The notes below the pieces were generated by a model. The model had not been told where the DNA came from and did not search any database. It saw nothing but the letters and a program-made list of their open reading frames with translations. Positions 9,961-57,032 of a stretch of 64,000 nucleotides of DNA are shown piece by piece. Positions within the stretch are counted from its first letter, which is position 1. The number at the start of each line of letters is the position of its first letter. Source of the DNA: Amphiura filiformis (lineage: Eukaryota > Echinodermata > Ophiuroidea > Amphilepidida > Amphiuridae); the NCBI RefSeq assembly GCF_039555335.1, contig NC_092628.1, forward strand, positions 100,893,893-100,957,892, in the 5' to 3' direction. Both the position numbers and the translations under genes were made by a program.

Positions 9961-10564
9961 TTCTGATGCCACCAGTCTATGGCACAGTTTGCCCTTTCCC
10001 CATTTGAGATTTGCATTAAACACCAAACTAGTCCAACGTCACTTAAAAGAATTCTTCCAAATTCCTACGAAGTATTGTTTGTTTCCTTATTTAATTCGTC
10101 GAAAGTTTGGGATTACCTGCGCATGGTCTGTATCATTCAGGAATTTTATGATTTGGTGCTTTGCACATTACAATGACCAGTAGTACATGCACGTCATAGA
10201 TATTTAAACATACTTATTGCACGTCATGCGTTTATAGACTTACTAGTATTATTGTAGGCCTATTTTGCTTCTTATGAAGTGTGCCAAATATTTTCTGATT
10301 TCCTAAAAACTTGGTTCAACCAAACTGTCGCAACTGGAAATACCAACCAATCAATATCCGGTGAAAAGGCATAAAAGCAGAGTGATGGGAAATACCTTCA
10401 AACATTATAGCTATAATAGCGCATCAGATAGCAACACAGATAGTATTCAACTTATTCACAATGCATATAACACGGGAAATTAGGACGTCTGTAATTACAC
10501 TATTCACGGGTAAGCAATAAACATATTCATTGTTATTATTATTTAAACATTTGTAACACGCCAT
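9961..10564. other. no gene recognised
   Basis: Two overlapping short frames at 9979-10183 have no recognisable family or signal. Nothing else is supportable. Confidence 0.4.
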
Positions 10565-11199: not shown

Positions 11200-11476
11200 G
11201 TTCGTATGCACAAAACAAGTTAGACCAGGTCTGACTTTAGACCTGATCTAACTACGAAGATCAGTCCTAAGGAGAAGGAACTTTGTGGTACTTGCATGTA
11301 TATGCCTACCTTAATTCTATATTTCTACATGTAACTTATTATTAGATGGCTCTATTGAACTTTGCTAGGATTAAAGGAGGAAAACATAAGATTAAAGGGA
11401 TCCCTCCCGAATTCCACAAATCTAAGTTCCTCCATAGTTAGATCAGGTCTAAAGTTAACTTGTTTTGTATACGGAC
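11200..11476. mobile_element. palindromic MITE, ~275 bp
   Basis: The terminal block (cgtatgcacaaaacaagtta, then actttagacctgatctaact) at 11202-11257 is repeated in inverse at 11434-11476. The left arm also has an internal agaccaggtct palindrome. No coding capacity. Confidence 0.55.
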
Positions 11477-11479
11477 CGG

Positions 11480-13152
11480 GTTTATTTCTCAAGGCAAGTC
11501 TACTGTCTGAATAAACCAATTCGGATATCCCATGATGAGACAACAAAAAATCATGCACGGGTAAATACCTGTTAATGTGACATTCTGATTTTATGTATGC
11601 TACATAATAGTTTGTGTAACTGCTCCTCCGAACATAATGCCGAACAATGATTACGAGCGTAAATAGGCCAATTTGATCATACAATATCATTCTGTTTCGC
11701 TCGCTCTGTAGAGTAAAATAATGCTATCACCATTTCAGCGTCGACCGCATGTAAAGTCTCAGCATCACCCGATAATGAGGGCCGAATGTGCCATGAAATG
11801 CGACAGGAAAACTGCTACGCACTTTTTCACGGTCTATCGCGTTACCGCGATTGCGAAGGCACGTAACGATCTATTGCGTATACGCGAAGGCACGCAACGC
11901 TGACGTGGTTGTTAGACACGGCACGATCGAATAATCGCCCCTCATGAATATGCGGGAATTCACAGCATATAATGCACGGGAACTTTGACTGTTGATACAT
12001 GGTCTGTAGTAGTCTCCGGTCGACTGCTTGCGTGTGTATACTCCGAATTCTTCGCAGCGCACGCCGTCAATTTTTCTCGAATTTCTAGTTTTTGTATGAT
12101 GGTAATGCCCAAATGAAAGACTTTAAAGCCTGAAGTGCTCTAATTACAGTAAAATGTATGTTCTTATAGATCTCCGGTTTTATTCGGAGTGATGGCTAAT
12201 ACGTCTCGTGCATGTGAACTGCCGTGCATGTGTATCATTGAATCAGTGACGTATAAACTGTGTGCATATCGCTCTTCGTCTTACGTCTTACCAAACGTCC
12301 CAGCTGCGTGAAGCTACGCTCAATAAGAATACATGTATCGGCTATCTAATATACGCATTGTAAATTGTGGCTCGAAATTAAAAGGGTACAATGAGACAAT
12401 GTGATCAGTACAAATTAACATTTAATATGCAAATCACATATTATTCTTTTAATCAAATTGCTTTGTTCCCTTGTTCGGGTTATAGCAAATCTATAGCTGT
12501 TCAGTTTTTTTTAACAATTTTGACGATATTAATGGTGTTCTGCGTTAGCACATCACTCGGATAATCCCTTTAAGTTAATAAGATAGGTCTAATTTTGACA
12601 GATCAACGGAAGCAATTTGCCCATGACCTGCCGGTGTATCGGACACGGTTCTTGCAACACATCCCTGTTTAACTGTGAGAAAATAACCACGTGTACAATT
12701 AATTTTAGGTCTGATTTAATCATATCTTCTATATGTTTATAACATGTTTTGACGAAGATTGAATGAATTATGCAAAATAATTAGCAGAAAGTTTTTCACT
12801 GATTTATTTCATATATTTTAGTGTCAATTTTATCGGGTTATGTTATCAGAAAATAATAACCACCTGATCAATATTATCATTCAGAAACATAGTATTACAT
12901 GCATCCAGTATGATAGTAGTGAAAAAATGCTCATGTGCTCAAATTAATTTGAAGAAAATATAGGTCATTGTCAAATAAAAACTGTGGTGTGGGTGGGTGT
13001 TTTGCTTTGTTTAGCTTGCACTCCCGCCCCTTCGAGGCTCGTGCATTAGACGCATCAACATCTCAGTACGCGTGCATCATTTTGTAATTTCACTCCCAAC
13101 AAGTGATACGCGTTTATGAACCAATAATTATCCATGTATCCCATGTATTCGT
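11480..13152. other. upstream region of the cytokine gene
   Basis: No gene is recognised. This region should contain the promoter, and possibly a short first exon, of the gene starting at 13153. A CpG-containing stretch with repeated 'gcgaaggcacg(t/c)aacg' occurs at 11855-11900. I could not place a convincing TATA box or transcription start. Confidence 0.4.
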
Positions 13153-13350
13153 ATGATGTATGTCTATGTTATCATCGTCCCACTTTTTATCCTAATTCCA
13201 GCTGCCTTACTATGTTGCTTTCGAAGTGGTATGTGTCGACCATTGTCACGGAGATCTGTCAATGAAGGTGGACAACGTAACATCACCATGAATATGCTAG
13301 TTCATACTTATAATTTAATAACCAAGCAAAGGAGTTTACTAACAACTTAC
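13153..13350 (+). CDS. cytokine exon 1: signal peptide and helix A
   Basis: Residues 1-66. Two adjacent ATGs (13153, 13156) precede the hydrophobic core. The exon ends TTAC|gtaagt, a near-consensus donor, right after Thr-Thr-Tyr. A pyrimidine-rich stretch followed by CCAG at 13198-13201 could act as a splice acceptor. If a short upstream exon exists, as in LIF and IL-6, exon 1 could instead begin at 13202 with a phase-1 border. The in-frame signal peptide makes 13153 the simpler start. Confidence 0.68.
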
Positions 13351-16300
13351 GTAAGTTTTGTTTTAATGTCATCATGTATTCGTAACGTAAAGCACAGTGT
13401 CGATTTTCATCATCAAAATTAATATATAATTGAAAAATAACACTTTGATGCTTTGCAAAAGTTCATTAACTACAAATAATGTACTTTGAAAACTTGCTTG
13501 ATTGATTGTTGTTAATAAGTTATGCACGTTTACAAAAGTATTCGTCTTCTATACACTCACTATAAAATGATCAATGCAATTTTTGCCAAAGCTCACCACC
13601 ATTCGCAAGATGCTCTGAACTACCAAATCGCAACAGTTTCAAATAGTTGCTAACCTTAATTCAACTCTACTTTGGTAGTGAAGAAATAAAGTAAAATACA
13701 ATAAAAAGGTTCAAATAAAGGTAGACTACAATGCTGGCCAAAATGTGTTGGGACACTTATGAAAAACGTACACTTTGGAAGGCCTTATTTTCGTAATTTG
13801 TAACGTGATGTAATGGGTGGGTTTTTTTTGGTGTCAAGCCTATACATTTTCCTAACACCCCAATCCCCCCCCCCCTTTCCCACCAATCAATGTTGGGTGC
13901 CACTAGGCGCTAGTGACCAAAAAAGTAGGATTCACCGGGGGAGTGGGGGGGGGGGGCTTATTTAGATAACCCTCTCAAAACCGTCCCAACACTTATGGCC
14001 AACATTGTAGATAGGTTTGGACCTCTCACCCATCAAAACGGTTACGGGGGTAAGTGGTACAGGTAATCAAACAAAATAGTCATTTGACTAATTTACAAAA
14101 TTCACAGATTTGGCACAAGTCTAGGCATCCAAAATATTGAGTATTATAGGCTGAGGACGTACTAATAATTTTAATATTTTAATTGCTATAAAAGACTTTA
14201 GAAAAAAGTGTTTTACAAAAATTAGAATCCACAACCTGAAATTAATCTTTGTACACTCTAAAATAAAGTAAGTTATATAAACAGAGGAAGAGGCTTACGC
14301 ATCATACACTGGAACATGGAAACATTCAAACATTACAACTAGCGCACGAGATCAAATTAATGATGCTTAATCGTTATTCTTAATATATCAATATACAGGG
14401 AAAGAAGAATTACGCATCGCACACTAGCACATTTAAACATGAATTTACAAATGGAAACAATACTTGTTTGTACTGTTCACCCTTGACTGCTCATATCCAT
14501 AAGTACCAGACTTGAGTCCTGTTTATCAGGGACAGTCTGTGTAGCTCAGTGGTTAGAGCGCTCGCCCGACAAGCGAGAGGTCTGGCATTCAAGTCCCCGC
14601 ACAGGCAGGTATGTCCGGAGTTTTTTCTCTGGTATATCTGCCTATGCATGTTATGTTTCCATTTGTAAATTCATGTTTAAATGTGCTAGTGTGCGATGCG
14701 TAATTCTTCATTCCCCTGTATAAGTTATATACTGAAATATTTACCCATGCTGTCCATATTTCCTTGTTTAACATTGTTCTCTCACACTAAAAACTGTTGA
14801 GGACAACAGTTTTTAACGCATTCACGGCCATAATTAAAATTTGCATTTTTCAATGTCTTCAATTTTGAACACCCGTGTTAAAGAAATGAACACTGACAGA
14901 ACACATTTTGCACACCTTTTTTGTAACAGTTTGGGAACACTATTTGATCTAGAACGTTCCAGAACACATAGATTAGACATGTTGGACGAGTGAATCAGCG
15001 TATGGAAGCAAGTAATGGCATGCCTTCAATTGAAAGTAATACTATCATTTTTCGGATGGGTTGATTCACTGTGGTTTTCCGGTACATATAAATTTGGTAA
15101 TAAGGATGCAATGATTATGATGGAATGGGCATCCCCCGAGACTCAGTGTATTGTTTTTCAAATATAAAAAAAGCGAGCGCCAATTGCGAATTGTGAACGC
15201 TGCGTTGGTGTACGCAAAAAGGTTTACCTATCAAAAAGAAAATATTTTAAATATTAATCAGTAATATGGTAGTGGTAAAAAACCGAGAACTGTTTCAAGC
15301 TAAATACATGAACATATAAAATAAACTTTTGTGTTTTGTTACAGAGTACTGATTTAATGCGGAATAGTAACGGACAATATGCCCGACAAATACAACGCTG
15401 CCAGGTGCCTGGTGTTCATACACCCAATTTCCATTTCAACCACCTATCATTTTGGATACATATGGTAAGTACAAGTTCACAATAATAAAACGGTTTTTGA
15501 ATGGGATGCGCCCCAAAATATCAGACGACACCTCTATAATATGCTGTCAACTTAACCTATTACTGAGACAAATAAAATATGATACAAATTATATAATTCT
15601 AAAAGCATGATGAACATGATGAAAATCTACAATGAGCGAATTTGCTTTAGGTAAAGGTACCGGAAGAATAAACTGTATGTGCATGTATACAACGGGGAAT
15701 CCCCGCGACCTTCAGGAAAGACGTTGAACTTTCATGCAAGCATCAGGGCAGAAGTAGTCCACTTGCTCATTGTACTCTTGCTATTAGTACACTTAAGCAT
15801 AAAACTCTGATTTGTATTCTCTCTTATGTACAATTGATAAATTTTCACATCTGATCTTTTCAGTCACCGTACTCCCTCTGTTTGTTAGCTTCCCAATAAT
15901 TTTTTACTCGGGTTTTCGCGATCAATAAGAACTGGTAGATTCCAAAATCAGAGTTGTTCAGTATTGAAGTGAGCCAGTATAATTATGCGCATGTATGTTA
16001 CTATCATGTCTGTCATTTGCGTGTTTAATAAGCATAAATAATGCTTGTTTGAATGAATTTGAAAAACAAAGATTGTCTCTTTGTTTTTAACCCTTTTACC
16101 AATTTGTTTTGTTTTATTTTCCATCCAGCCTGTTCAGGACAAAATGGTATCCCATCTAGAGGTTCTGCAAGGATTTCGTTCACTAATAAGTGCCACCAAC
16201 CTTGATAATGAAGTACTGCATATAACAGGATTCGACAACCAAGCTCAGCATGTTGTAGCCGGCATTGACCATGTAATCGATTATATAAATCAATTGGTGA

Positions 16301-16522
16301 GTATTTCTTAACATACTTAAACGGTTGGTCTTATTCCTGGAATTGTGAAAAATTTTGGGCCTCATAACTGCCAAATTGTTGGTCTAAAGTATATAAAAGT
16401 ATAGATATTTAGAATGGCAAAGACTTTTTTCGCGTAAAAATGTTTATTATTTAAATAAATTTTAACGTTTTTTTATGATTTTCTTTGTTAAAGCTGGTCA
16501 CAATTAAAAAAATATATATATA

Positions 16523-16585
<63 letters not shown>

Positions 16586-18032
16586 AAAAATAAAAAAATA
16601 AATAAAGGGTCCTAGATATTTATATCTAGTTTTCATTTATTGATTTTTTACTTTTTTCTTGTTTGAACATTTTAAACCAAATTTGACCTCACAGATGGAT
16701 GCATCAAGTCTTTGCCAAATATGTATACTTTTCTATACTTTAGACCAACAATTTAGCAGTTTTGAGGCCCAAAGGTTTCCATAATTCCAGGGATAAGACC
16801 ACCCTTAAGGTGAGGCATTTTCTGGAAACTAGAAAATACTCTTAGCATAATTTTAAACAGATTAAATGTGCAAAGCAAAATACACTGATCAATATCCTTC
16901 TTGTTTGAAGCAAATCGGACATGCGGTTTTCATACATCGATTTATATTTGTTTTGTTTTTATGTTTGTATCAATAATAAATATACGGTAGTTGATGTGCT
17001 AAAATGACTGAAAAAGCTTATTTATACTTTTGACAGTATTAAGCTAAATCACTGCATAAACGAAATTTTTCGAAATGTAAAAATGTAAACAGATATGTAT
17101 AATAGCCCTATTTGTTTTACACAATGTGGACCAATTTATAGCGTCACACGTCATTGCGTTCAGTCACAATGGTTAATTATGCAAGAAAGGAGGCCGTTTT
17201 AAAAGTTGCACCTGAGTCCATAGCAGTCAGGTTTTCTTTAACAAACACATGAATAGACCTGGCCTACTGTATTGTTTGAGAGTTGACTCCTATGGACTCA
17301 GAGTCAGATGCAACTTTTAACACTGTTTAAAACGGTCTCTGTTTTACATAATGAACCATTGTGACTGAACGCAATGTCGTGTGACGCTATAGTTTGGTCC
17401 ATTATGTGTAAAACAAATACGGCTACCCATACCTTTTTACACGTTTGCATTTTGTCAAATGTTTTTCAATTTATTTTAAAAAGTATTTAGGGGGGACTTA
17501 TAAGTTGTGGACCCTATATTAAGATCGACGGTGTCAAAAGCTACAGAGAGGTCTAGCATATAAAGGAGGACAGCCTTCGCATCGTCAAGGGCACGAGAAA
17601 AATCATTGTGCACACATTGCAAGAAGCAATGACCGCCATCATAATATGTTGGATAATATAGTGAAACTTTGCGAAGAAAACAATGATCAGTTTTCATCAA
17701 ACATGGCATGTATAAAAAAAATATGTTTGGGAGAGATATCATCGAGTTTGTTCCAGCACCAAATATTGCTAATACTTACATCTAACAAGTCTTCCTTATT
17801 GTTTTCATCTCCTCTTCAGATTGCCTTGGAGAATCTAAACGGAATCTCTAGAATTCATCCGCATGAAGAATGTAACCACACCGACGGTAGCTTGTCGCGT
17901 CTTGACGAGATACTTTATATTTTACAACAATTTAACACATATGCAACGGGTCCTCTAAGCGCTATATACCTAAATAACGGGTTTGAAATTGAATTAGAAA
18001 TAGACACGGATCATCACATTTTGGTGAATTAA
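13153..18032 (+). CDS. putative long-chain four-helix cytokine, IL-6/LIF/CNTF-like (4 exons)
   Basis: Joining 13153-13350, 15345-15464, 16129-16296 and 17820-18032 gives 232 residues with every intron in phase 0. The first ~22 residues are a hydrophobic signal segment (VIIVPLFILIPAALL), so the product should be secreted. Predicted helices by inspection: A about 43-66 (MLVHTYNLI...RSLLTTY), B about 107-130 (DKMVSHLEVLQGF), C about 141-170 (AQHVVAGIDHVIDYINQL), D about 186-206 (LSRLDEILYILQQF). Helix D resembles the CNTF/CLCF1 D helix in spacing. Cys28, Cys85 and Cys180 could remain in the mature chain. N-glycosylation sequons are at Asn43 and Asn181. Known family members act through gp130-type receptors and JAK-STAT. 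The length (~205 mature residues) and exon plan fit IL-6, G-CSF and LIF relatives. Sequence identity is low, so the family call is inference; a different helical cytokine branch is possible. Confidence 0.72.
13729..14007. mobile_element. Tc1/mariner-like MITE in cytokine intron 1
   Basis: Ends CAATGCTGGCCAAAATGTGT and the complement of ACACTTATGGCCAACATTG form 27-bp inverted repeats with a few mismatches, each bordered by TA (13727-13728 and 14008-14009). The interior has C- and G-runs and no open frame. It is in the + strand intron 13351-15344. Confidence 0.7.
14392..14722. mobile_element. foldback element carrying a tRNA-like core, intron 1
   Basis: About 70 bp at 14392-14460 (tatacaggg, aattacgcatcgcacactag, atgaatttacaaatggaaac) is repeated almost exactly in inverse at 14652-14722. 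A related but diverged direct copy sits at 14281-14340. Between the arms is the tRNA-like sequence at 14535-14607. Confidence 0.7.
14535..14607 (+). tRNA. tRNA-like sequence (pseudo-tRNA or SINE head), anticodon-position GAC
   Basis: Acceptor GTCTGTG pairs with CACAGGC (one G-U), the D-arm tagctcagtggttagagc is a good A box, and the anticodon stem CTCGC/GCGAG is perfect. The T-stem fails at two of five pairs, residue 33 is C instead of U, and the anticodon would be GAC (Val), which eukaryotic nuclear tRNA sets normally lack. I therefore read it as a tRNA-derived element, not a functional gene. Confidence 0.5.
15345..15464 (+). CDS. cytokine exon 2: A-B loop
   Basis: 120 nt encoding residues 67-106, bordered by tttgttACAG at the 5' side and TATG|gtaagt at the 3' side, open in phase 0. 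It is polar, with one Cys (QRCQVPG) and a Trp near the end (LSFWIHM). A separate ~40-codon exon for the A-B loop is the arrangement in IL-6, G-CSF and EPO-type genes (family knowledge). Confidence 0.7.
16129..16296 (+). CDS. cytokine exon 3: helix B and start of helix C
   Basis: 168 nt, residues 107-162, between ttttccatccAG and CAATTG|gtgagt; phase 0 on both sides. The heptad-like spacing of Leu/Val/Ile in DKMVSHLEVLQGFRSLI and in HVVAGIDHVIDYINQL fits two amphipathic helices. Confidence 0.72.
16316..16809. mobile_element. palindromic MITE with (TAAA)n loop, cytokine intron 3
   Basis: Arms of about 110 bp (ggtcttattcctggaatt, ttttgggcctcataactgcc, aaattgttggtctaaagtat, ggcaaagact) at 16316-16425 recur in inverse at 16708-16809. 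The loop holds a (TAAA)n run at about 16520-16605, whose reading frame gives only a Tyr/Ile/Leu repeat. Confidence 0.7.
17065..17517. mobile_element. palindromic MITE, copy 1 of a ~510-bp family, cytokine intron 3
   Basis: Foldback element related to 24949-25459. Shared blocks include atagccctatttgttttaca, tggaccaatttatagcgtca, cattgcgttcagtcacaatg, gcacctgagtccatagcagt and their inverses. The left tip is lost here; the right tip (ttataagttgtggaccct) is present. Confidence 0.7.
17518..17640 (-). pseudogene. LINE reverse transcriptase fragment, motif A region
   Basis: Read on the minus strand the segment gives VHNDFSRALDDAKAVLL followed by LDLSVAFDTVDL. This is the LDLSxAFDTV motif A of LINE reverse transcriptases, with the catalytic Asp. 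Only about 40 codons remain, directly beside the palindromic element ending at 17517, inside intron 3 of the cytokine gene and antisense to it. No start, palm motif C (YxDD) or 3' end is present. Confidence 0.7.
17820..18032 (+). CDS. cytokine exon 4: end of helix C, C-D loop, helix D
   Basis: 213 nt including TAA, residues 163-232, after tctcctcttcAG. It holds the C-D loop with Cys180 and the Asn181-His-Thr sequon, then LDEILYILQQFNTY as helix D and an acidic tail (ELEIDTD). The first canonical AATAAA on this strand that I find downstream is at 20343; an ATTAAA occurs near 19163, so the 3' end is not fixed. Confidence 0.72.
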   Translation: MALENLNGISRIHPHEECNHTDGSLSRLDEILYILQQFNTYATGPLSAIYLNNGFEIELEIDTDHHILVN

Positions 18033-18088
18033 TCCAGCGTTAATCATGACAGTACTGAATTATGTACTCGAGGAACAATAGGTGTATT

Positions 18089-18184
18089 CAAGCCCGTTAT
18101 CGTATGCAATAACCAAAATGTTCATCATGTCTAATCCAAGCCCGTTATCGTATGCAATAACCAAAATGTTCATCATGTCTAATC
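18089..18184. repeat. 48-bp tandem duplication
   Basis: Two consecutive copies of a 48-bp unit beginning caagcccgttatcgtatgca and ending tcatcatgtctaatc lie about 55 bp after the cytokine stop codon, so probably in the 3' UTR. I see no difference between the copies, which suggests a recent duplication. Confidence 0.85.
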
Positions 18185-19748
18185 CAATATCTATTCTTCT
18201 TGTTGCACTTCATATTATTTTGCTCTTTTTGTGAAACAAATTTCTAATTTATTTATAACATACCAAAGTTGTATTTTGTAAAACTAACCATGCCACGTCA
18301 GACAAGGAATACTACACGGTAGTTCTGGTTTGGGTTATAAAGGTTTACATGGGTAAGGTGCATGCGCGGGGCAATATTGCATAATGCATGCAATTACTTT
18401 TGAAGTTTGCAACTCATTTGAAGTGCAATTTTCTTTATAAATAATATATTTTGTATTCCATTCTGTGACAAATTTGTTTTCGAAAGAAAAGTAAAATGTT
18501 AACTTATATTTGTTGTTTTAAACTAGTTTTATTTACTAATTGATGGATAGTATAGTATAGAGAAATACCGTAAATATTCGACTAATGGCGCATATGGGCT
18601 CCCTTGACATAACAGAACTGAAATTTTACCCACAAACTAAATTCTCCCGTAAAAACCAAACCAGCAAATGAGGGCACATACCACATACTTTAAGTCTTGT
18701 TGGGATTTTCAGAGGAGGTAGCGCCCTATTTGTTCGTGAAATTTACTTGAAGGGAATGGAGCTCACGTGTGCCATAAAGGCGAATCTTTACAGACTAGCA
18801 GACTATACACATGATGCAGATTTGCAGACAATTTTGGACCATCTTTGGTGCCGGGTGTCTGTGTAATGACTAATGTAGTGGTTTAATGTATATGCCACAA
18901 TTGTACTTTGTAAAGTTAACCATATATGGCTCGTACAACAAAGAATTTACTTTGTAAAGTTAACCATATATGCCTCGTAACACAAAGAATATTACACAGT
19001 GGTCCCCGGGATAGTGGTTCCGTAATATCTTGTCTGTCAATGCTTTGGGCTAAATGTTTGCATTGCTAGATGGAGAGGCATACGCTGGGCAATGGTGATT
19101 CAGAGATTCTCAGACAGCTTATGTTGCCAATCCCTTACACCCTAAAATTCAAATCAATATGCATTAAAAAAAATTAGATGTTAATGTGCATTTATTTATA
19201 TATCGCGTGATTGAAACTTTGGAAACCCATGGTTAACTATATAGCAATGGACGCAGCTACGGGATAACAATTTACACCAACAGAACGAGTTATGTAGTTT
19301 ATTTTATGAAATCGGCATAAGATAACTTGAGCTGTTTTATGTAAATTCTGAATTATTTGTGTTGAATTGACCGTATTGCTGATATATTTATTTTCATTAG
19401 ACACGATTACTCATTGACCCTTTAAGTTTGTCCTGGGAAAATCTATCATACGGAAGTACAGGATTGAATAAGGTCTTTCTCTGATGTTAAACACCGAAGG
19501 TGCCTTCCTGCCAAAAATATCAATAGATTTGAAAGCCTGAAATGTTGGATGATTTCTTTTTGATTTGAGAAGAAAGATAAGTAGATAAAGTAGTTGTTTG
19601 CATTGACCGTATTTATATTCCAAAGTGTACTTAATTATAGCATGTTATTTATTATATATATATATGTAATATATTTATCTTTCGTATTATTGTACAAATG
19701 TGTTTAATTTATTCACATGCATGATATTCTGTTTTTTAACTCCTGAGC

Positions 19749-32614: not shown

Positions 32615-33665
32615 GACACTTTTAATGAACATCTAAATAGCTCTAATCTAAGTCTAATGCACTTCAATTCACGCAGTGTAAACAAAAACCTCCAGGTACT
32701 CTAGCTTCTCGTTTCACACCTTACCATCAATCACGTACCGAACTTAGCTCTGCTTCAGATACAACTCGGCTTAGTACAAAAATTAAATGCCAAATCTCTC
32801 CACTCTGCCGCAAATAAAGCTTTTTCTCTGGCTGCTCCTGGACAGTGGAACAATTTACCCATCGCCATTCGTACTGCAAACTCATTACCAGTCTTCAAGA
32901 AATTACTGAAGTCATATCTCTTCCAAAAAGTTGACTGTTTTTATTGCTCACTTTGTTTGTTATATTGTGTTTATGCTTTGAATTTGTTTATGTGCTGTGG
33001 TCTAGATGTAAAGGCTCTTTATAAAACATGTAAAAGCACTGTGTATGTATGTACGAGTATGTATGTATAATATTGTAACTGATTATTTAAAAACACTTAA
33101 TCATAAATTCCCACTTATTGCATTCAGTGAGTCCTGGCTCAACATCGATGGTAATATTATTGTTCAATTCAACAGAGTTGGAAAAAAGGAGGTGGGGTAG
33201 CATTATATAATTCTGACGATCGCAACGATCTCGCGATGATCTGAATCTATTTCCCAGTCAAGATTATGATTCAGTTTTCATTGAAATCGAAAGTCAGACA
33301 AAACATTCCATAATTGGAGTCATTTATAGACCTCCTGACAGATGTGCTCAATCCTTTTATCACTAATTTATCTACCACCATCAACTTAATCAATAGGGAA
33401 CACCTCCCAACCTTCATTTGTGGCGATTTCAACCTTGATTTAGTTAATACATCTACCCACTCAGTTTCAAATGATTTCCTCAACACATTGTATGCCTCCT
33501 CATTTTATCCACTAATCGATAAACCAACTCGTATGACCCCAAAGAAATCTTCCATAATCGACAATATCTTTTGTAATCTTTCGTAAGATATTAAATCATA
33601 AAATAGAGCCTGGTATCATATTTAGCGCCTTCACTGATCACTTCCCTGTATTCCATAAATGTATC
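32615..33665 (+). pseudogene. LINE apurinic-like endonuclease fragment, broken and interrupted
   Basis: LSLMHFNSRSVNKN at 32640-32687 is the start of an APE-type endonuclease. It resumes at 33085 (FPLIAFSESWLN, then GGGVALY), passes through a frameshift to IIGVIYRPP, then PTFICGDFNLDL, DKPTRMT and IIDNIFCN, and after another frameshift gives FTDHFPVFH near 33640. The GDFN and DH motifs are catalytic in the family. At least two frameshifts and a 370-bp insertion (32688-33058) show it is dead. Confidence 0.75.
32688..33058 (+). mobile_element. second LINE 3' end inserted in the endonuclease fragment
   Basis: Encodes TPYHQSRTELSSASDT and, after a frame change, FSLAAPGQWNNLPIAIRTA followed by LPVFKKLLKSYLF, a LINE ORF2 C-terminus. 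It ends in a TGTA-rich tail (33040-33070). The endonuclease reading resumes right after it, so this LINE jumped into the older one. Confidence 0.65.
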
Positions 33666-43489: not shown

Positions 43490-43850
43490 TGACCTGTGGT
43501 GTACATGTGTAAATGATGACTTGATCTGAGGTCCAGGTATTGGTGTAATGGTGACTTGATCTGAGGTCCAGGTATTGGTGTATATGTGTAAAGGGTGAAA
43601 TGATCTGAGGTCCAGGTATTGGTGTATATGTGTAAAGAGTGACTTAATCTGAGGTTCAGGTATTGGTGTATATGTGTAAAGGGTGACTTGATCTGAGGTC
43701 CAGGTATTGGTGTATATGTGTAAAGGGTGACTTGATCTGAGGCCCAGGTATTGGTGTATATGTGTAAAGAGTGACTTGATCTGAGGCCCAGGTATTGGTG
43801 TATATGTGTAAAGGGTGACTTGATCTGAGGTCCAGGTATTGGCATACTGC
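43490..43850. repeat. 44-bp minisatellite, array 1 (~8 copies)
   Basis: Unit tgatctgaggtccaggtatt + ggtgtatatgtgtaaagggt + gact. Since 44 is not a multiple of 3, the three frames of one strand each run through with a 44-residue period, which explains the long minus-strand open frames. I do not call a protein. Confidence 0.95.
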
Positions 43851-43946: not shown

Positions 43947-44255
43947 ACTAGTTAACGTCGCTGTGTGAAAAATAACCGGCCAATATTAAAAGTACTCTTC
44001 TAAAGTTCTAGAAAATATAGTTTTTAACATGTCCTAAATTTTTAGCTAATTTAGATGTTTGGAAATATTCGTACTTTGGTGTTTTAGTTAATGTTATAGG
44101 TAATAGTACATTGCCTAGTTAACGTCGCTGTGTGAAAAATAACCGGCCAATATTAAAAGTACTCTTCTAAAATTCTAGACAATATAGTTTTGTAACATGT
44201 CCTAAATTTTTAGCTAATTTAGGTGTTTGAGAGGGTCGTACTTTTGTGTTTTAGG
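43947..44255. repeat. two direct copies of a 167-bp unit
   Basis: ctagttaacgtcgctgtgtg and the following ~110 bp at 43948 recur at 44115 with few changes, ending in tttagctaatttag(a/g)tgtttg. The pair sits between the two arrays of the 44-bp minisatellite. Confidence 0.85.
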
Positions 44256-44630
44256 AAGGACATGTAAACAACAGATAACACCAAAAATATGAAGAAATTA
44301 TTTCCAAACCGTGTTAAGTCAAAAATCATTATGTTGCTCATTTTCAAGAATGCTGGTTTACAAAAAGCACGCCATTGTCTGATTTCGTGAACAAAGCCAC
44401 ACATAACATTGTTTCCTTTCGTTTCCTTTATAATCGGTTACCCAACTGAAGCTATGAATACCAGCTTTATTGCGATATCGCACATGAAAACAGTCACTTG
44501 TGCACAACCAGAGAAGATCCGATTTAATCAGTTGAGCTGTTTCAATGAGTGTTATCTTGGTTTAATAGCTTTTAATGGGGTTAAGTCCTGCAAAGGTCGA
44601 GATGAATTCTACTGTAGACATGACTGCATC

Positions 44631-45475
44631 ATGGTGTATATGTGTAAAGGGTGACTTGATCTGAGGTCCAGGTATTGGTGTATATGTGTAAAGGGTGACT
44701 TGATCTGAGGTCCAGGTATTGGTGTATATGTCTAAAGAGTGACTTGATCTGAGGCCCAGGTATTGGTGTATATGTGTAGAGGGTGACTTGATCTGAGGTC
44801 CAGGTATTGGTGTATATGTGTAAAGGGTGAATTGATCTGAGGTCCAGGTATTGGTGTATATGTGTAAAGGGTGAATTGATCTGAGGTCCAGGTATTGGTG
44901 TATATGTAAATGGTGACTTGATCTGAGGTCCAGGTATTGGTGTATATTGTGTAAAGGGTGACTTGATCTGAGGCCCAGGTATTGGTGTATATGTGTAAAG
45001 GGTGACATGATCTGAGGCCCAGGTATTGGTGTACATGTGTAAATGGTGACTTGATCTGAGGTCCAGGTATTGGTGTATATGTGTAAAGGGTGACATGATC
45101 TGAGGCCCAGGTATTGGTGTACATGTGTAAATGGTGACTTGATCGGAGGTCCAGGTATTGGTGTATGTGTAAAGGTGAATTGATCTGAGGTCCAGGTATT
45201 GGTGTACATCAGTAAATGATGACTTAATCTGAGGTCCAGGTATTGGTGTATGTGTAAAGGGTGACTTGATCTGAGGTCCAGATATGTGTAGAGGAAGACT
45301 TAATCTGAGGTCCAGGTATTGGTGTATTATAATTATGTGTAAAGGGTGAATGGATCTGAGGTCAAGTTATTGGTGTATATGTGTAAAGGGTGACTTGATC
45401 TGAGGTCCAGGTATTTGTGTATATGTGTAAAGGGTGACTTGATCTGAGGTCCCGGTATTGCTGTAAGAGCCCCAG
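44631..45475. repeat. 44-bp minisatellite, array 2 (~19 copies)
   Basis: Same unit as 43490-43850, with variants (tccagg/cccagg, tgtatatg/tgtacatg) and several shortened units towards the right end. Minus-strand frames up to 215 codons (44562-45209) only read the repeat. Confidence 0.95.
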
Positions 45476-46535
45476 TGATATTGTTCTTGTAAAGCCCCCC
45501 CCCCCTCCTTCGTGTATATGTTTAATGATAACTTGTATGAATCAGGAACCAGGTTTAGGGTCGTTTGTAAAAGCATGGTGCGTTGTGGGGACGTGGTGAT
45601 CATCTTCTTTGTGTACACATAACGGTACATAGTATATAACAAAGAAGGAAACATTTGAAGATCTCAGGATAATGAACCGAACTTCAACATCCGGTCAAAT
45701 CAATTCATGGATTAATGAAGCACAGTGTCTTCAAGCTTCATTACAGAGAACCTTCACGACACTTGTAAGATTTATAGCGATTTGAGTATCTTTTATTATA
45801 TTATTGGGTTTATTTTCAATTTTTGGTACGCTGCAAATCCATCTTTTAATGGATAAGTCACGCTGAAATAATTTAAATCCAATAACTAATACCAATTTTG
45901 ATATTAAAAAAAATGATATAAATTTTGAATGTTGATTTTTAAGTTGTCTGATATTTCACTTTGCTTCATTAACCTATGCATTGAATTGACCTGCTGTTGC
46001 AGCTGGCACGATGCTTCACAATTCTTTATTATGTAACACATGTGTACATATTATTGTCGTAGAAGAATTTAATTTTTAAATATCACTTATCCAGTGGCAA
46101 GCAATTGGGAGTTGTAAATATAGTTGCTACTTACCCGTGGGTCCAGTTTCAAATGTGATCGTTGTTAGTCAAATCCCCAATACTTATTCAAGAATTAAAT
46201 CATAATTGGTCCTATAATGTAGACTCATCGATATATTTATATGTAGAATAATAATATCCTAAATTGAAATAATTACGGGCAAGCTGTGAACCCTAGCAAC
46301 TGTTCAAATCTGTGATATACAGTAAATTGATGTGTCCTATTTAAAGTTTTATTTATTAAATATATAAAAGCAATAACTGTGATTAGTGCGTGTAACAATA
46401 ATATTCTAAAGCTTGTATCTCAAATACACACAAAGGGGCCTAAGCTAATTATATCGCTTTCCTGCGTCAACCGACGAAAAAGAAAATACAAACTATTGCC
46501 TCTGTGGCTCAAGAGCCACGAATATCAGGTGTCGA
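45476..46535. other. no gene recognised
   Basis: C-run near 45498; otherwise AT-rich without supportable features. Confidence 0.4.
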
Positions 46536-49852: not shown

Positions 49853-50348
49853 ATTTGCTTAAAAAGTTACCTTTTTCAAAGTCTTGGTTAGCAGGACAAG
49901 ACCCCTAACACCAACAAATGTGGTGTAATTTACCAAATCAGCTGCCCCGAATGTGAGAACACTTATGTTGGCGAGACAAGTAGAACTTTTGGCACCCGGT
50001 TCAAAGAACACACTAAAACCACCACCACCCGAACAGCAGTCGGTGACCACAAAGCTGATCACAAACACGACATCAGCATGGACGATGTGGAAGTCATCGG
50101 CAGGGAGGATCGTTTCTGGAACAGAAAGATCAGGGAAGCCATAGAGATAAAGACACTAAAACCTACACTCAACAGGGACGCCGGATACGACCTGCCCGCC
50201 ATCTACAATAATCTGCTGACACTTGACCACCCATCGGGTGGTCATGTGACCGGAGAGTTGTAAACACTACGCTGAATGAAGATGCCGTAATGGTGTCGCA
50301 AGCTACGTCGCTGCTAAGCAAGACTCTGAAAGAGGTAACTTTTTAAGC
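49853..50348 (+). mobile_element. Penelope-like element remnant bounded by inverted repeats
   Basis: TTTGCTTAAAAAGTTACC (49854) and its complement GTAACTTTTTAAGC (to 50348) enclose a GIY-YIG reading frame. The inverted ends extend ~38 bp (cagagtctt(g/t)gttagcag). The same ends without the gene occur as a 120-bp palindrome at 57033-57152. The reverse transcriptase of the parent element is missing. Confidence 0.65.
49895..50263 (+). pseudogene. GIY-YIG endonuclease domain of a Penelope-like element
   Basis: One open frame of ~123 codons to TAA at 50261-50263. It contains NKCGVIYQISC..C, then TYVGETSRTFGTRFKEH, then REDRFWNRKIREAIEI and LNRDAGYDLP. GVIY and YVG are the GIY-YIG pair, with the C-x-C spacing and the conserved Arg and Glu typical of the endonuclease at the C-terminus of Penelope-like retroelements. 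No in-frame ATG precedes the domain; it is the 3' end of a longer ORF that has lost its reverse transcriptase. The frame is intact, so the copy is fairly young. Confidence 0.8.
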
Positions 50349-54806: not shown

Positions 54807-56558
54807 TCAAAATGTTCGCTTGGGTGTGCAACCAAATATTTGGCGCAGTTCTTTGAGACAATCTCTTCTAAATCTGTCATTGACTATGGAATAAATGAAT
54901 GGATTAGCAGCGTGGTTAACGATAAAAAGCATTTTCATTACAAGCAGTATAGTTATTACAGTTTCATTAAATCTTTGATCTCTAGTGTCGGGCGTTTCGA
55001 TCAATATCACCGACGATATTAACGTCGGTATCCAGGTCACGTATGTGACAATGGTAACAAGAAGAAGCATGTTTGTTGTTTTGTTTTGCATCCTCTGTGA
55101 AGCAATAGACCGAGTACTTGCTTGACTATTAAAGCTCCCGCCTGGCTGTCTGCGTAAAAATCCACGAAAAGACATCAAAGAACTTTGGCGCTTTCCACCT
55201 CTGCTATTCTCCCGGTCATTGTCGAACTCGTCGTCATACTTTATAGGTTCGAAGTGTCTGTTTTGGAAAAGTGGACTTGGTGCAGGATCAATAACTACCG
55301 GTCCTTTCTTTGGTGACACTGCTGGAGAGGATGGGGCAGTATTGGTTGGCGTTACGGCAAGGCGATTGTTAACCCCGTTGGTCACTGCACCGAGTTCTTT
55401 CGTAACAACGGAAGGTTCTTCAGTTTCGTTTTGATTACTGTTGTCCTCAAGTGCCACCGTTGGAGATTGTTGATTGTCTTCTGAATCATTTGTCACGTCA
55501 TTTGTCGTGTTAATTTGAGATTCATTGTTTGGGGATGTATCATTTGTCTTGCCTTCTTTATCATCGCGTAAATCGACACCATCGTTAGTGTACGCCTCGT
55601 CCTCTTTTTCATGCTTTTGTACTAAATGTTCAGTGCTTCCGCCATCTGGTGTAACAACATTAATCGACGACTCCTCAAGACATTGTACTGCAACACCTTC
55701 GACCCTAATGGTATTGACAGATCCATTGGATTTAGAAGGTGAAGGCTTAGTAGAAATATCATCGTTGTTGACGTGATTAATTGAGCCGTTGGACTTGGCG
55801 GGTGATTGGGTAGTTGAGATCTTACCAATGTTGTCTGTTTCTGCCTCGTCTATTTTAGAAAGAGGGGTACTGCTGCGTCTCGAGGTACTATCTATGCTTC
55901 TCATAGATGCACTTAATCCTGGTCTCATTGATAACGTCGGTCCGAGTACTTTATCTCTTATAGTTGTATAAACCTTACCGTAAAGTGCAGCTACAAGTAC
56001 AAGAGACAAAACGTAGATAGAATACATAGCGCTCGCCCCGATCCATTCAGCAATATCATCCGGGGCGGGCCAACACATATACACAGTCCTGTTGTTGAAA
56101 TTTTCATCCAAAACTGTCCCTTCTATAACGTCCGAAAAAAGTAGAGATGGAGCGCTTACAAAGGCAGCAGCAACGACGCTTAAAACTACAGCAAGTCTGG
56201 CCCGAAATGGAGTGACAATTTTCTCATGGGGTTTGCAGACGGCGTAATAGCGTTCTATAGCGATTACTGTGGTGATGAATAGCGAGTAATAAACACCAAG
56301 AACAACACTAAAGTATCCACCTTGGCACACCAACGAACTTGCAATATCATATTCGAAAAACCAGTAGGCTATCAATGCTGCCGTAGATAGGCATACATAT
56401 AAATCAGCAATAGCTAAGCCTAATATAAAAATATGGGTACTAGTCTTACGTTGTTTCTTGGCGAACACGCGAATGATAAGTGCATTACCTGGTACGCCTA
56501 GTATAAACACCAAAGCATGTAGAACAGTTAGTACCCAAACGTGAAGACTCTGCTCCAT
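54807..56558 (-). CDS. orphan class A (rhodopsin-like) GPCR with giant third intracellular loop
   Basis: Intronless frame of 583 residues from ATG at 56556-56558. Seven membrane segments: TM1 ~7-30 (GN at 24-25), TM2 ~42-65 (LAIAD 48-52), TM3 ~79-101, then ERY at 102-104 in place of DRY, TM4 ~120-141, TM5 ~174-196, TM6 ~496-520 (TWIP where CWxP is usual), TM7 ~535-556 (NPFIY 552-556). Cys78 and Cys162 can form the standard disulfide, and Asn156 is a sequon in loop 2. Unusual points: only ~6 residues before TM1, no Trp in TM4, and a loop 3 of about 300 residues, acidic and Ser/Thr/Asn-rich. The tail is short with Cys576 as a possible lipid site. It resembles amine/peptide receptors in general, but I cannot name a ligand. 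Confidence 0.93.
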   Translation of the reverse strand: MEQSLHVWVLTVLHALVFILGVPGNALIIRVFAKKQRKTSTHIFILGLAIADLYVCLSTAALIAYWFFEYDIASSLVCQGGYFSVVLGVYYSLFITTVIAIERYYAVCKPHEKIVTPFRARLAVVLSVVAAAFVSAPSLLFSDVIEGTVLDENFNNRTVYMCWPAPDDIAEWIGASAMYSIYVLSLVLVAALYGKVYTTIRDKVLGPTLSMRPGLSASMRSIDSTSRRSSTPLSKIDEAETDNIGKISTTQSPAKSNGSINHVNNDDISTKPSPSKSNGSVNTIRVEGVAVQCLEESSINVVTPDGGSTEHLVQKHEKEDEAYTNDGVDLRDDKEGKTNDTSPNNESQINTTNDVTNDSEDNQQSPTVALEDNSNQNETEEPSVVTKELGAVTNGVNNRLAVTPTNTAPSSPAVSPKKGPVVIDPAPSPLFQNRHFEPIKYDDEFDNDRENSRGGKRQSSLMSFRGFLRRQPGGSFNSQASTRSIASQRMQNKTTNMLLLVTIVTYVTWIPTLISSVILIETPDTRDQRFNETVITILLVMKMLFIVNHAANPFIYSIVNDRFRRDCLKELRQIFGCTPKRTF

Positions 56559-57032
56559 GATTCAAATGTAGTGAAACCGACGTCAACAAATGTACTACCT
56601 TAGTTGAAACAAGTAATGTCTTCTTTTTAATCAAAAAGTCAGCTCTACGATGATAGAAATCCGTCTTAGAGAGTATTAAGCGTGAACCCCAGGCGTGAAC
56701 TAAAATCAAAACCTTCCTTAACAGTGCGAAGTTGAATACTGCGCAGCATCCTTGGTATCGATCATATGACTTGACAAGATCGCCAGCAGACAATGATATA
56801 TATAGCTTGCGACCTTTTCACTTACAACGCGCCAGTTTATGCGATGATAATATTGAAAGCAGTTGCACGTTTATTTTCAGACTTGATATGCCATGGTTAC
56901 CGGGTATGGTTATGAAAGAATACAAAAAAAGAGTTCGTTAATAATGTTGTAATTCGACATGATACGCGGTATATTTCAAATCGAAATAAAATAATTATGA
57001 TAATCTTAGCAGTGCGGATACTGATTCTTGAC
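56559..57032. other. 5' flank of the GPCR gene
   Basis: Read on the minus strand it includes a TATATATA run near 56797-56804, about 240 bp before the start codon; this could be a core promoter but is unproven. Upstream ATGs exist in this region, so a leader intron is also possible. Confidence 0.3.

What the first reader, a model, noticed from the sequence alone, without database searches (positions are those of the whole stretch)
13153..18032. A candidate IL-6/LIF/CNTF-like helical cytokine gene in what looks like an invertebrate
Seen directly: four open segments with good splice borders join without a frame break into a 232-residue protein with a signal peptide, four amphipathic helical stretches in the right order and spacing, three possible mature Cys residues and two sequons. 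Family knowledge: IL-6-class ligands signal through gp130/Domeless-type receptors; outside vertebrates, few such ligands beyond insect Unpaired proteins are described. Inference: this is a ligand of that class in a non-vertebrate, and could reveal the missing partner of JAK-STAT receptors there.
Basis: partly seen in the sequence, partly recalled or inferred. Interest (0 to 1): 0.93.

Follow-up and report, generated by a model that had tools for sequence, protein, structure and literature searches.

The report
Possible brittle-star helical cytokine gene
A brittle-star gene of unknown function encodes a small, apparently secreted protein whose exon layout resembles that of growth-hormone and interleukin-6 type signalling proteins, but no sequence match or structure confirms the kinship yet.

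Summary
The corrected gene has five coding exons (49/149/120/168/213 nt), intron phases 1-0-0-0. Human GH, PRL, IL-6 and EPO genes, as I recall them, have the same phases and similar body-exon sizes. A hydrophobic leader, four helix-prone segments, a long A-B loop and two sequons fit a long-chain class I helical cytokine (by eye). No sequence test confirms it: Pfam 0 hits, CNTF/CLCF1/CT-1 profile at chance level, recalled family signatures absent, no other homologue in two searches. I judge 'class I helical cytokine' about even odds; the narrower IL-6/LIF/CNTF label is not supported. If true, it would be the first gene-level ligand of this class that I could find reported or proposed for an echinoderm in the open-licence papers searched.

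The parts
10461..10509 (+). Coding exon 1 (49 nt): start codon, residues 1-16 and first base of codon 17; followed by donor GTAAGC; intron 1 is phase 1
   Evidence: N-terminus of P0001 found only here, both strands searched; rebuilt CDS equals P0001
13202..13350 (+). Coding exon 2 (149 nt, residues 17-66): rest of the leader and most of helix A; intron 2 is phase 0
15345..15464 (+). Coding exon 3 (120 nt, residues 67-106): end of helix A and A-B loop with C85 (15399-15401); intron 3 is phase 0
   Evidence: helix borders by eye
16129..16296 (+). Coding exon 4 (168 nt, residues 107-162): helix B and most of helix C; intron 4 is phase 0
   Evidence: helix borders by eye
17820..18032 (+). Coding exon 5 (213 nt, residues 163-232 and stop): end of helix C, C-D loop with C180 (17871-17873) and sequon N181, helix D, C-terminal tail
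   Evidence: helix borders by eye
13153..13201 (+). An alternative first exon here is not excluded
10336..10396 (+). Possible promoter elements upstream of exon 1: GGAAATACC at 10336-10344 and 10388-10396 (NF-kB-like, recalled resemblance) and ATAAAAG at 10371-10377
   Evidence: GGAAATACC: 2 matches in the window, 0.45 expected, 7 of 100 shuffles reach 2; ATAAAAG: 27 matches, 23.1 expected, uninformative. Patterns were chosen after seeing the sequence

Best explanation
A brittle-star (Amphiura filiformis) gene for a secreted long-chain class I four-helix cytokine, of no assignable vertebrate subfamily. Proposed mechanism: the roughly 200-residue mature protein is secreted, folds as an up-up-down-down four-helix bundle pinned by one disulphide between the A-B loop and the C-D loop (C85-C180), and binds a gp130/Domeless/GHR-like class I receptor that activates JAK-STAT. 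Shown: the gene model as a reading of the sequence and of the public protein, intron phases, Cys and sequon positions, absence of a detectable known domain. Inferred: secretion, fold, disulphide, receptor, pathway.
For: Five coding exons with phases 1-0-0-0. Recalled human GH, PRL, IL-6 and EPO genes give the same phases, and body exons of 57/40/55/66, 70/36/60/62, 70/38/49/56 and 53/29/60/52 codons against 66/40/56/71 here. Exon contents follow the same plan as I recall it: leader plus helix A, A-B loop, helices B and C, C-D loop plus helix D. Size 232 aa with a hydrophobic leader; long A-B loop, short B-C link. Local alignment z-scores of 1.8 or more for 8 of 16 recalled cytokines and 0 of 3 non-cytokine helical bundles. 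A C-x(4)-V-x-T-P motif at C85 recalls the GH/PRL disulphide loop (pattern recalled). Published precedent that helical cytokines fall below sequence detection and that exon structure adds support (PMC2654155). Echinoderm IL-6-type receptors are reported (PMC13203501; PMC4503460), and JAK-STAT genes are in an early expression cluster of A. filiformis arm regeneration (PMC11310086).
Against: No sequence-level homology to any cytokine family: Pfam 0, PDB nothing relevant, profile P 0.29, HMM score 0.3 bits reached by 70 of 273 reported class-preserving shuffles. The 8 z-scores above include IL-10 and IL-4, outside the long-chain class I group, while GH is -1.4, LIF -0.5, OSM -0.4. No homologue outside this species in two searches. 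Helix moments weak. C180 lies before helix D rather than within it as in GH (GH position recalled). The tail after helix D looks strand-prone rather than helical (by eye). Phases 1-0-0-0 arise by chance in about 3% of genes under assumed phase frequencies. One paper says the sea urchin has no apparent cytokine receptor signalling (PMC3296744). No fold prediction was possible.
Confidence: 0.5

Rival explanations
1. A lineage-restricted secreted protein unrelated to cytokines (orphan hormone, matrix or immune protein) whose helix-prone segments and intron phases resemble those of cytokines by chance.
For: No detectable relative outside the species and no family match. Helix tests are not diagnostic. 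A phase-1 intron in the leader is common in secreted proteins (recalled), and 0-0-0 after it has about a 10% chance under assumed frequencies. PMC2654155 notes that such recognition methods give many false positives.
Against: The joint match of phases, exon sizes and exon contents to recalled cytokine genes.
Confidence: 0.35
2. A class II (IL-10/interferon-like) helical cytokine.
For: The highest pairwise z-score was to IL-10 (3.1; 1 of 200 shuffles as high).
Against: IFN-alpha2 scored -0.4. IFN-lambda and IL-10 genes have five body exons with phase-0 introns (PMC2654155) and fish type I IFN genes four phase-0 introns (PMC4929537); here there are four body exons and three phase-0 introns. One z-score of 3.1 among 19 comparisons is weak.
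Confidence: 0.08
3. A spurious gene model: open segments that join by chance, or a pseudogene.
For: The public protein comes from the same species, so its identity is not conservation. Codon usage is weak or negative. The only AATAAA/ATTAAA between 18033 and 19500 is an ATTAAA at 19163. I saw no RNA evidence.
Against: Strong donors (GTAAGC, GTAAGT, GTAAGT, GTGAGT) and pyrimidine-rich acceptors. A 49-nt first exon 2.7 kb upstream is unlikely to be called without transcript evidence (inference). The published A. filiformis annotation used assembled transcriptomes of 18 samples among other evidence (PMC11310086), though I cannot say that P0001 comes from it.
Confidence: 0.07

Closest known systems
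Growth hormone / prolactin family, and amphioxus GH-like (GHl)
   Same: Phases 1-0-0-0 and similar body-exon sizes, with an identical 120-nt exon 3 in recalled human GH; C-x(4)-V-x-T-P at the A-B loop Cys. GHl is a 208-aa type-I helical cytokine of low identity to vertebrate members in another invertebrate deuterostome (PMC9010856 passages).
IL-6 / LIF / OSM / CNTF / CT-1 / CLCF1 family
   Same: Size, general plan, phases as in recalled IL-6; pairwise z 1.8-2.1 to CNTF, CLCF1, CT-1 and IL-6.
   Different: Profile of CNTF/CLCF1/CT-1 at chance; LIF -0.5, OSM -0.4, IL-11 -0.1; no F-x-x-K; IL-6 and LIF/OSM signatures absent.
Insect Unpaired ligands
   Same: Would be another invertebrate ligand for a gp130/Domeless-like receptor (recalled; Upd-Domeless described in PMC13203501).
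   Different: Not compared: no Upd sequence was fetched; only the Pfam scan, which gave no family at all, bears on it.
IL-6-like molecule of the sea star Asterias forbesi (Beck and Habicht 1996)
   Same: Echinoderm and IL-6-like by its title; seen only as a cited reference.
   Different: No sequence of that molecule was seen, so no link to this gene can be drawn.

Membership tests
Long-chain class I helical cytokines (superfamily) | Up-up-down-down four-helix bundle fold | not testable with these tools
   Structure prediction switched off
Long-chain class I helical cytokines (superfamily) | Short leader exon with phase-1 intron, then four body exons separated by phase-0 introns (common plan, recalled; some members have fewer introns) | tested here: met
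   49/149/120/168/213 nt, phases 1-0-0-0; comparison with recalled gene structures
Long-chain class I helical cytokines (superfamily) | Four amphipathic helices of about 20-30 residues with a long A-B loop | tested here: inconclusive
   Spacing fits by eye; moment p 0.36, 0.18, 0.007, 0.15 against 0.006-0.448 in 12 known helices
Long-chain class I helical cytokines (superfamily) | Secreted by a signal peptide | tested here: inconclusive
   Hydrophobic leader in P0001 by eye; no predictor run
Long-chain class I helical cytokines (superfamily) | Binds a class I cytokine receptor | not testable with these tools
   Needs experiment
IL-6 / LIF / CNTF family | Match to the family's sequence profile | tested here: not met
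   Pfam 0 families; hhalign P 0.29 to a 41-sequence mammalian-biased CNTF/CLCF1/CT-1 profile; HMM 0.3 bits. No IL-6, LIF or OSM profile was built here
IL-6 / LIF / CNTF family | F-x-x-K at the start of helix D (LIF-receptor-binding members; recalled) | tested here: not met
   No F-x-x-K anywhere in P0001
IL-6 / LIF / CNTF family | IL-6 or LIF/OSM signature patterns (recalled) | tested here: not met
GH / PRL family | Full GH/PRL signature around the A-B loop Cys (recalled) | tested here: not met
   Only the opening C-x(4)-V-x-T-P matches; full pattern absent
GH / PRL family | Second Cys of the large disulphide inside helix D (recalled) | tested here: not met
   C180 lies about 6 residues before the helix D assigned by eye; no Cys within residues 186-214
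Class II cytokines (IL-10/IFN) | Five body exons with four phase-0 introns | tested here: not met
   Four body exons, phases 1-0-0-0; comparison

The most novel reading that the evidence does not exclude
The gene is a true long-chain class I cytokine of an echinoderm, near the common stock of GH and IL-6 type ligands, and the so far missing ligand of an echinoderm gp130/Domeless-like receptor, acting through JAK-STAT in immunity or arm regeneration. The class I ligand-receptor pair would then predate the split of echinoderms and chordates.
Probability: 0.3. Interest if true: 0.85.

Novelty: new member of a known kind. Interest (0 to 1): 0.6.

Why it matters
Two surveys found no IL-6 family ligand in invertebrates (PMC13203501; PMC8226699), although receptors of this kind are reported in echinoderms. 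A review describes class I helical cytokines in amphioxus and says none was detected in acorn worms or sea squirts (PMC9010856). A specific echinoderm candidate with a corrected gene model would make the age of the class I ligand, and its pairing with a receptor, testable in an animal used for arm-regeneration work.

Tried and rejected
Pfam, NCBIfam and PDB sequence searches gave nothing useful: Pfam 0 families; NCBIfam one sub-threshold match, E 0.13; PDB one match, nibrin, E 1.2. Pairwise alignment to 19 recalled proteins gave no significant subfamily call, and single-sequence hhalign probabilities were at most 0.7%. A by-eye ungapped match of helix D to CNTF that first looked striking did not hold up: the best profile match pairs the candidate's helix B region with the profile's helix D region at P 0.29, and the HMM score is within shuffles. 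Codon-usage scoring trained on the window's own GPCR did not support exons 2 and 3. No paralogue in the window: best tblastn match outside the gene E 0.99. Literature: ten paper searches listed no paper whose title or shown abstract names an echinoderm class I helical cytokine gene; the library holds open-licence PMC papers only and no preprints, and only 12 papers were opened, in passages or sections.

Full report
What is there. A search of about 5.8 billion proteins returned one hit at E up to 10 among 197 candidates: P0001, 'uncharacterized protein [Amphiura filiformis]', from a contig of about 103 Mb. So the window is most likely from this brittle star (Echinodermata, Ophiuroidea). Its N-terminus is encoded at 10461-10509, followed by GTAAGC, and joins an acceptor before 13202. 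The five exons rebuilt from the window give P0001 exactly: 10461-10509, 13202-13350, 15345-15464, 16129-16296, 17820-18032; introns of 2692, 1994, 664 and 1523 nt; phases 1-0-0-0. An alternative first exon there is not excluded.

Gene reality. Donors and acceptors are strong. The public model adds a distant 49-nt exon that a predictor would hardly choose without transcripts (inference). I saw no RNA evidence. The public protein comes from the same species, so it does not show conservation. A codon-usage score trained on the window's own 584-codon GPCR is against or neutral: -15.2 bits over 215 codons of exons 2-5, exons 2 and 3 no better than open control windows and scoring lowest in the coding frame, exons 4 and 5 better than about 89-90% of open control windows. 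The only AATAAA or ATTAAA between 18033 and 19500 is at 19163. Upstream of exon 1 lie the window's only two copies of GGAAATACC, at 10336 and 10388 (0.45 expected; 7 of 100 shuffles have two or more). Their likeness to NF-kB sites is recalled and the pattern was chosen after looking.

What it resembles. From memory, human GH, PRL, IL-6 and EPO genes have five coding exons with phases 1-0-0-0. The recalled sizes add up to the right CDS lengths. Their body exons are GH 57/40/55/66 codons, PRL 70/36/60/62, IL-6 70/38/49/56, EPO 53/29/60/52; the candidate has 66/40/56/71, within the range for the first three and 5 codons above it for the last. The candidate's exons carry leader plus helix A, the A-B loop, helices B and C, and C-D loop plus helix D (helix borders by eye). 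Fox and colleagues (PMC2654155; passages and section 6 seen) say that helical cytokines are hard to detect by sequence and use exon structure as supporting evidence, noting that recognition methods still give false positives. That caution applies here. With assumed intron-phase frequencies, 1-0-0-0 arises by chance in about 3% of genes and 0-0-0 after a phase-1 intron in about 10%.

Sequence tests. These are negative or neutral. Pfam: 0 families. NCBIfam: one match at E 0.13, far below its cut-off. PDB: one match at E 1.2, nibrin. A search with an alignment of recalled human CLCF1, CNTF and CT-1 found 388 proteins, of which the best 120 were listed; the named rows are mammals. From these I made a 41-sequence profile. 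hhalign gave probability 0.2% and P 0.29. hmmsearch gave 0.3 bits, reached by 70 of 273 reported class-preserving shuffles and 16 of 203 reported plain shuffles, 300 made of each; the reversed sequence scored -0.6. Pairwise local z-scores of residues 29-232 over 200 shuffles: IL-10 3.1, EPO 2.7, IL-4 2.5, leptin 2.4, CT-1 2.1, CNTF 1.9, IL-6 1.9, CLCF1 1.8, PRL 0.8, IL-2 0.8, IL-11 -0.1, OSM -0.4, G-CSF -0.4, IFN-alpha2 -0.4, LIF -0.5, GH -1.4; controls ferritin -0.1, apoE -0.2, cytochrome b562 -0.8. This leans towards cytokines in general but singles out no subfamily, and three controls are few. Signatures (recalled) for IL-6, LIF/OSM, GH/PRL and EPO/TPO are absent, as is F-x-x-K; only C-x(4)-V-x-T-P at C85 recalls GH/PRL. 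A second search over residues 43-232 again found only P0001 among 114 candidates. These searches need shared five-residue words, so distant relatives could be missed.

Helices. Moment tests with the best of several angles gave p 0.364, 0.176, 0.007 and 0.145 for A-D. GH gave 0.047, 0.356, 0.007, 0.301; IL-6 0.099, 0.264, 0.108, 0.006; LIF 0.448, 0.153, 0.396, 0.14. With a fixed 100-degree angle the candidate gave 0.153, 0.472, 0.022, 0.264. The candidate behaves like known members, but the test has little power.

Context in print. PMC13203501 (abstract, methods and results sections, passages) says that IL-6 family ligands are vertebrate-only and that IL6R reaches molluscs, with an echinoderm receptor in Strongylocentrotus purpuratus. 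PMC8226699 (passages) could not locate IL-6 superfamily members in invertebrates, while citing reports of IL-6-like proteins there. PMC9010856 (passages) describes amphioxus GHl and further divergent class I helical cytokine genes in amphioxus, and says none was detected in acorn worms or sea squirts. PMC4503460 (passages) reports raised IL-6 receptor contigs in a sea star. Against this, PMC3296744 (passages) says the sea urchin has no apparent cytokine receptor signalling. PMC11310086 (passages) puts JAK-STAT genes in an early expression cluster of A. filiformis arm regeneration; the whole word 'cytokine' does not occur in its held text. PMC5831733 (term search only), on A. filiformis development, has no word beginning 'cytokine'. 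PMC9465101 (passages) cites Beck and Habicht 1996 for IL-6 in invertebrates; I saw that work only as a reference.

Verdict. Exon plan, size, leader and loop lengths favour a long-chain class I helical cytokine at about even odds. The IL-6/LIF/CNTF label is an over-reach: the features of that branch that could be tested were not met. The decisive test, a fold prediction, was unavailable.

Noticed in passing
window 14398-14715 (intron 2): A tRNA-Val(GAC)-like sequence at 14535-14607 (Rfam 49.1 bits; ARAGORN) sits inside a hairpin with 69-nt arms, 94% complementary: perhaps a tRNA-bearing mobile element.
   Followed up: partly
window 16323-16804 and 17103-17425 (intron 4): Two long inverted repeats (arms of 88 nt at 89% and 104 nt at 82%), like fold-back or MITE-type elements.
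   Followed up: no
window 17476-17775 (-) (intron 4): Weak reverse-transcriptase-like fragment (RVT_1 E 0.075, below cut-off).
   Followed up: no
window 18086-18181: Tandem duplication of a 48-nt unit (98% identical) just after the stop codon.
   Followed up: no
window 54807-56561 (-): Open frame of 584 aa for a rhodopsin-type GPCR (7tm_1 E 2.3e-29), uninterrupted by introns over that frame.
   Followed up: no
window 49892-50263 (+) and 33314-33586 (+): Mobile-element fragments: GIY-YIG domain (E 1.4e-05; Penelope type by recall) and an endonuclease-reverse transcriptase-like fragment (E 0.00015, below cut-off).
   Followed up: no
window 43497-43842 and 44632-45465: Two arrays of the same 44-nt unit (8 and 19 copies), with overlapping long open frames on the minus strand; the GC skew rises to 0.28 at 44001-46000.
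   Followed up: no
window 11352-11723 (-): Open frame with a weak ferrochelatase match (E 0.0038, 16.7 bits against a cut-off of 27), probably chance.
   Followed up: no
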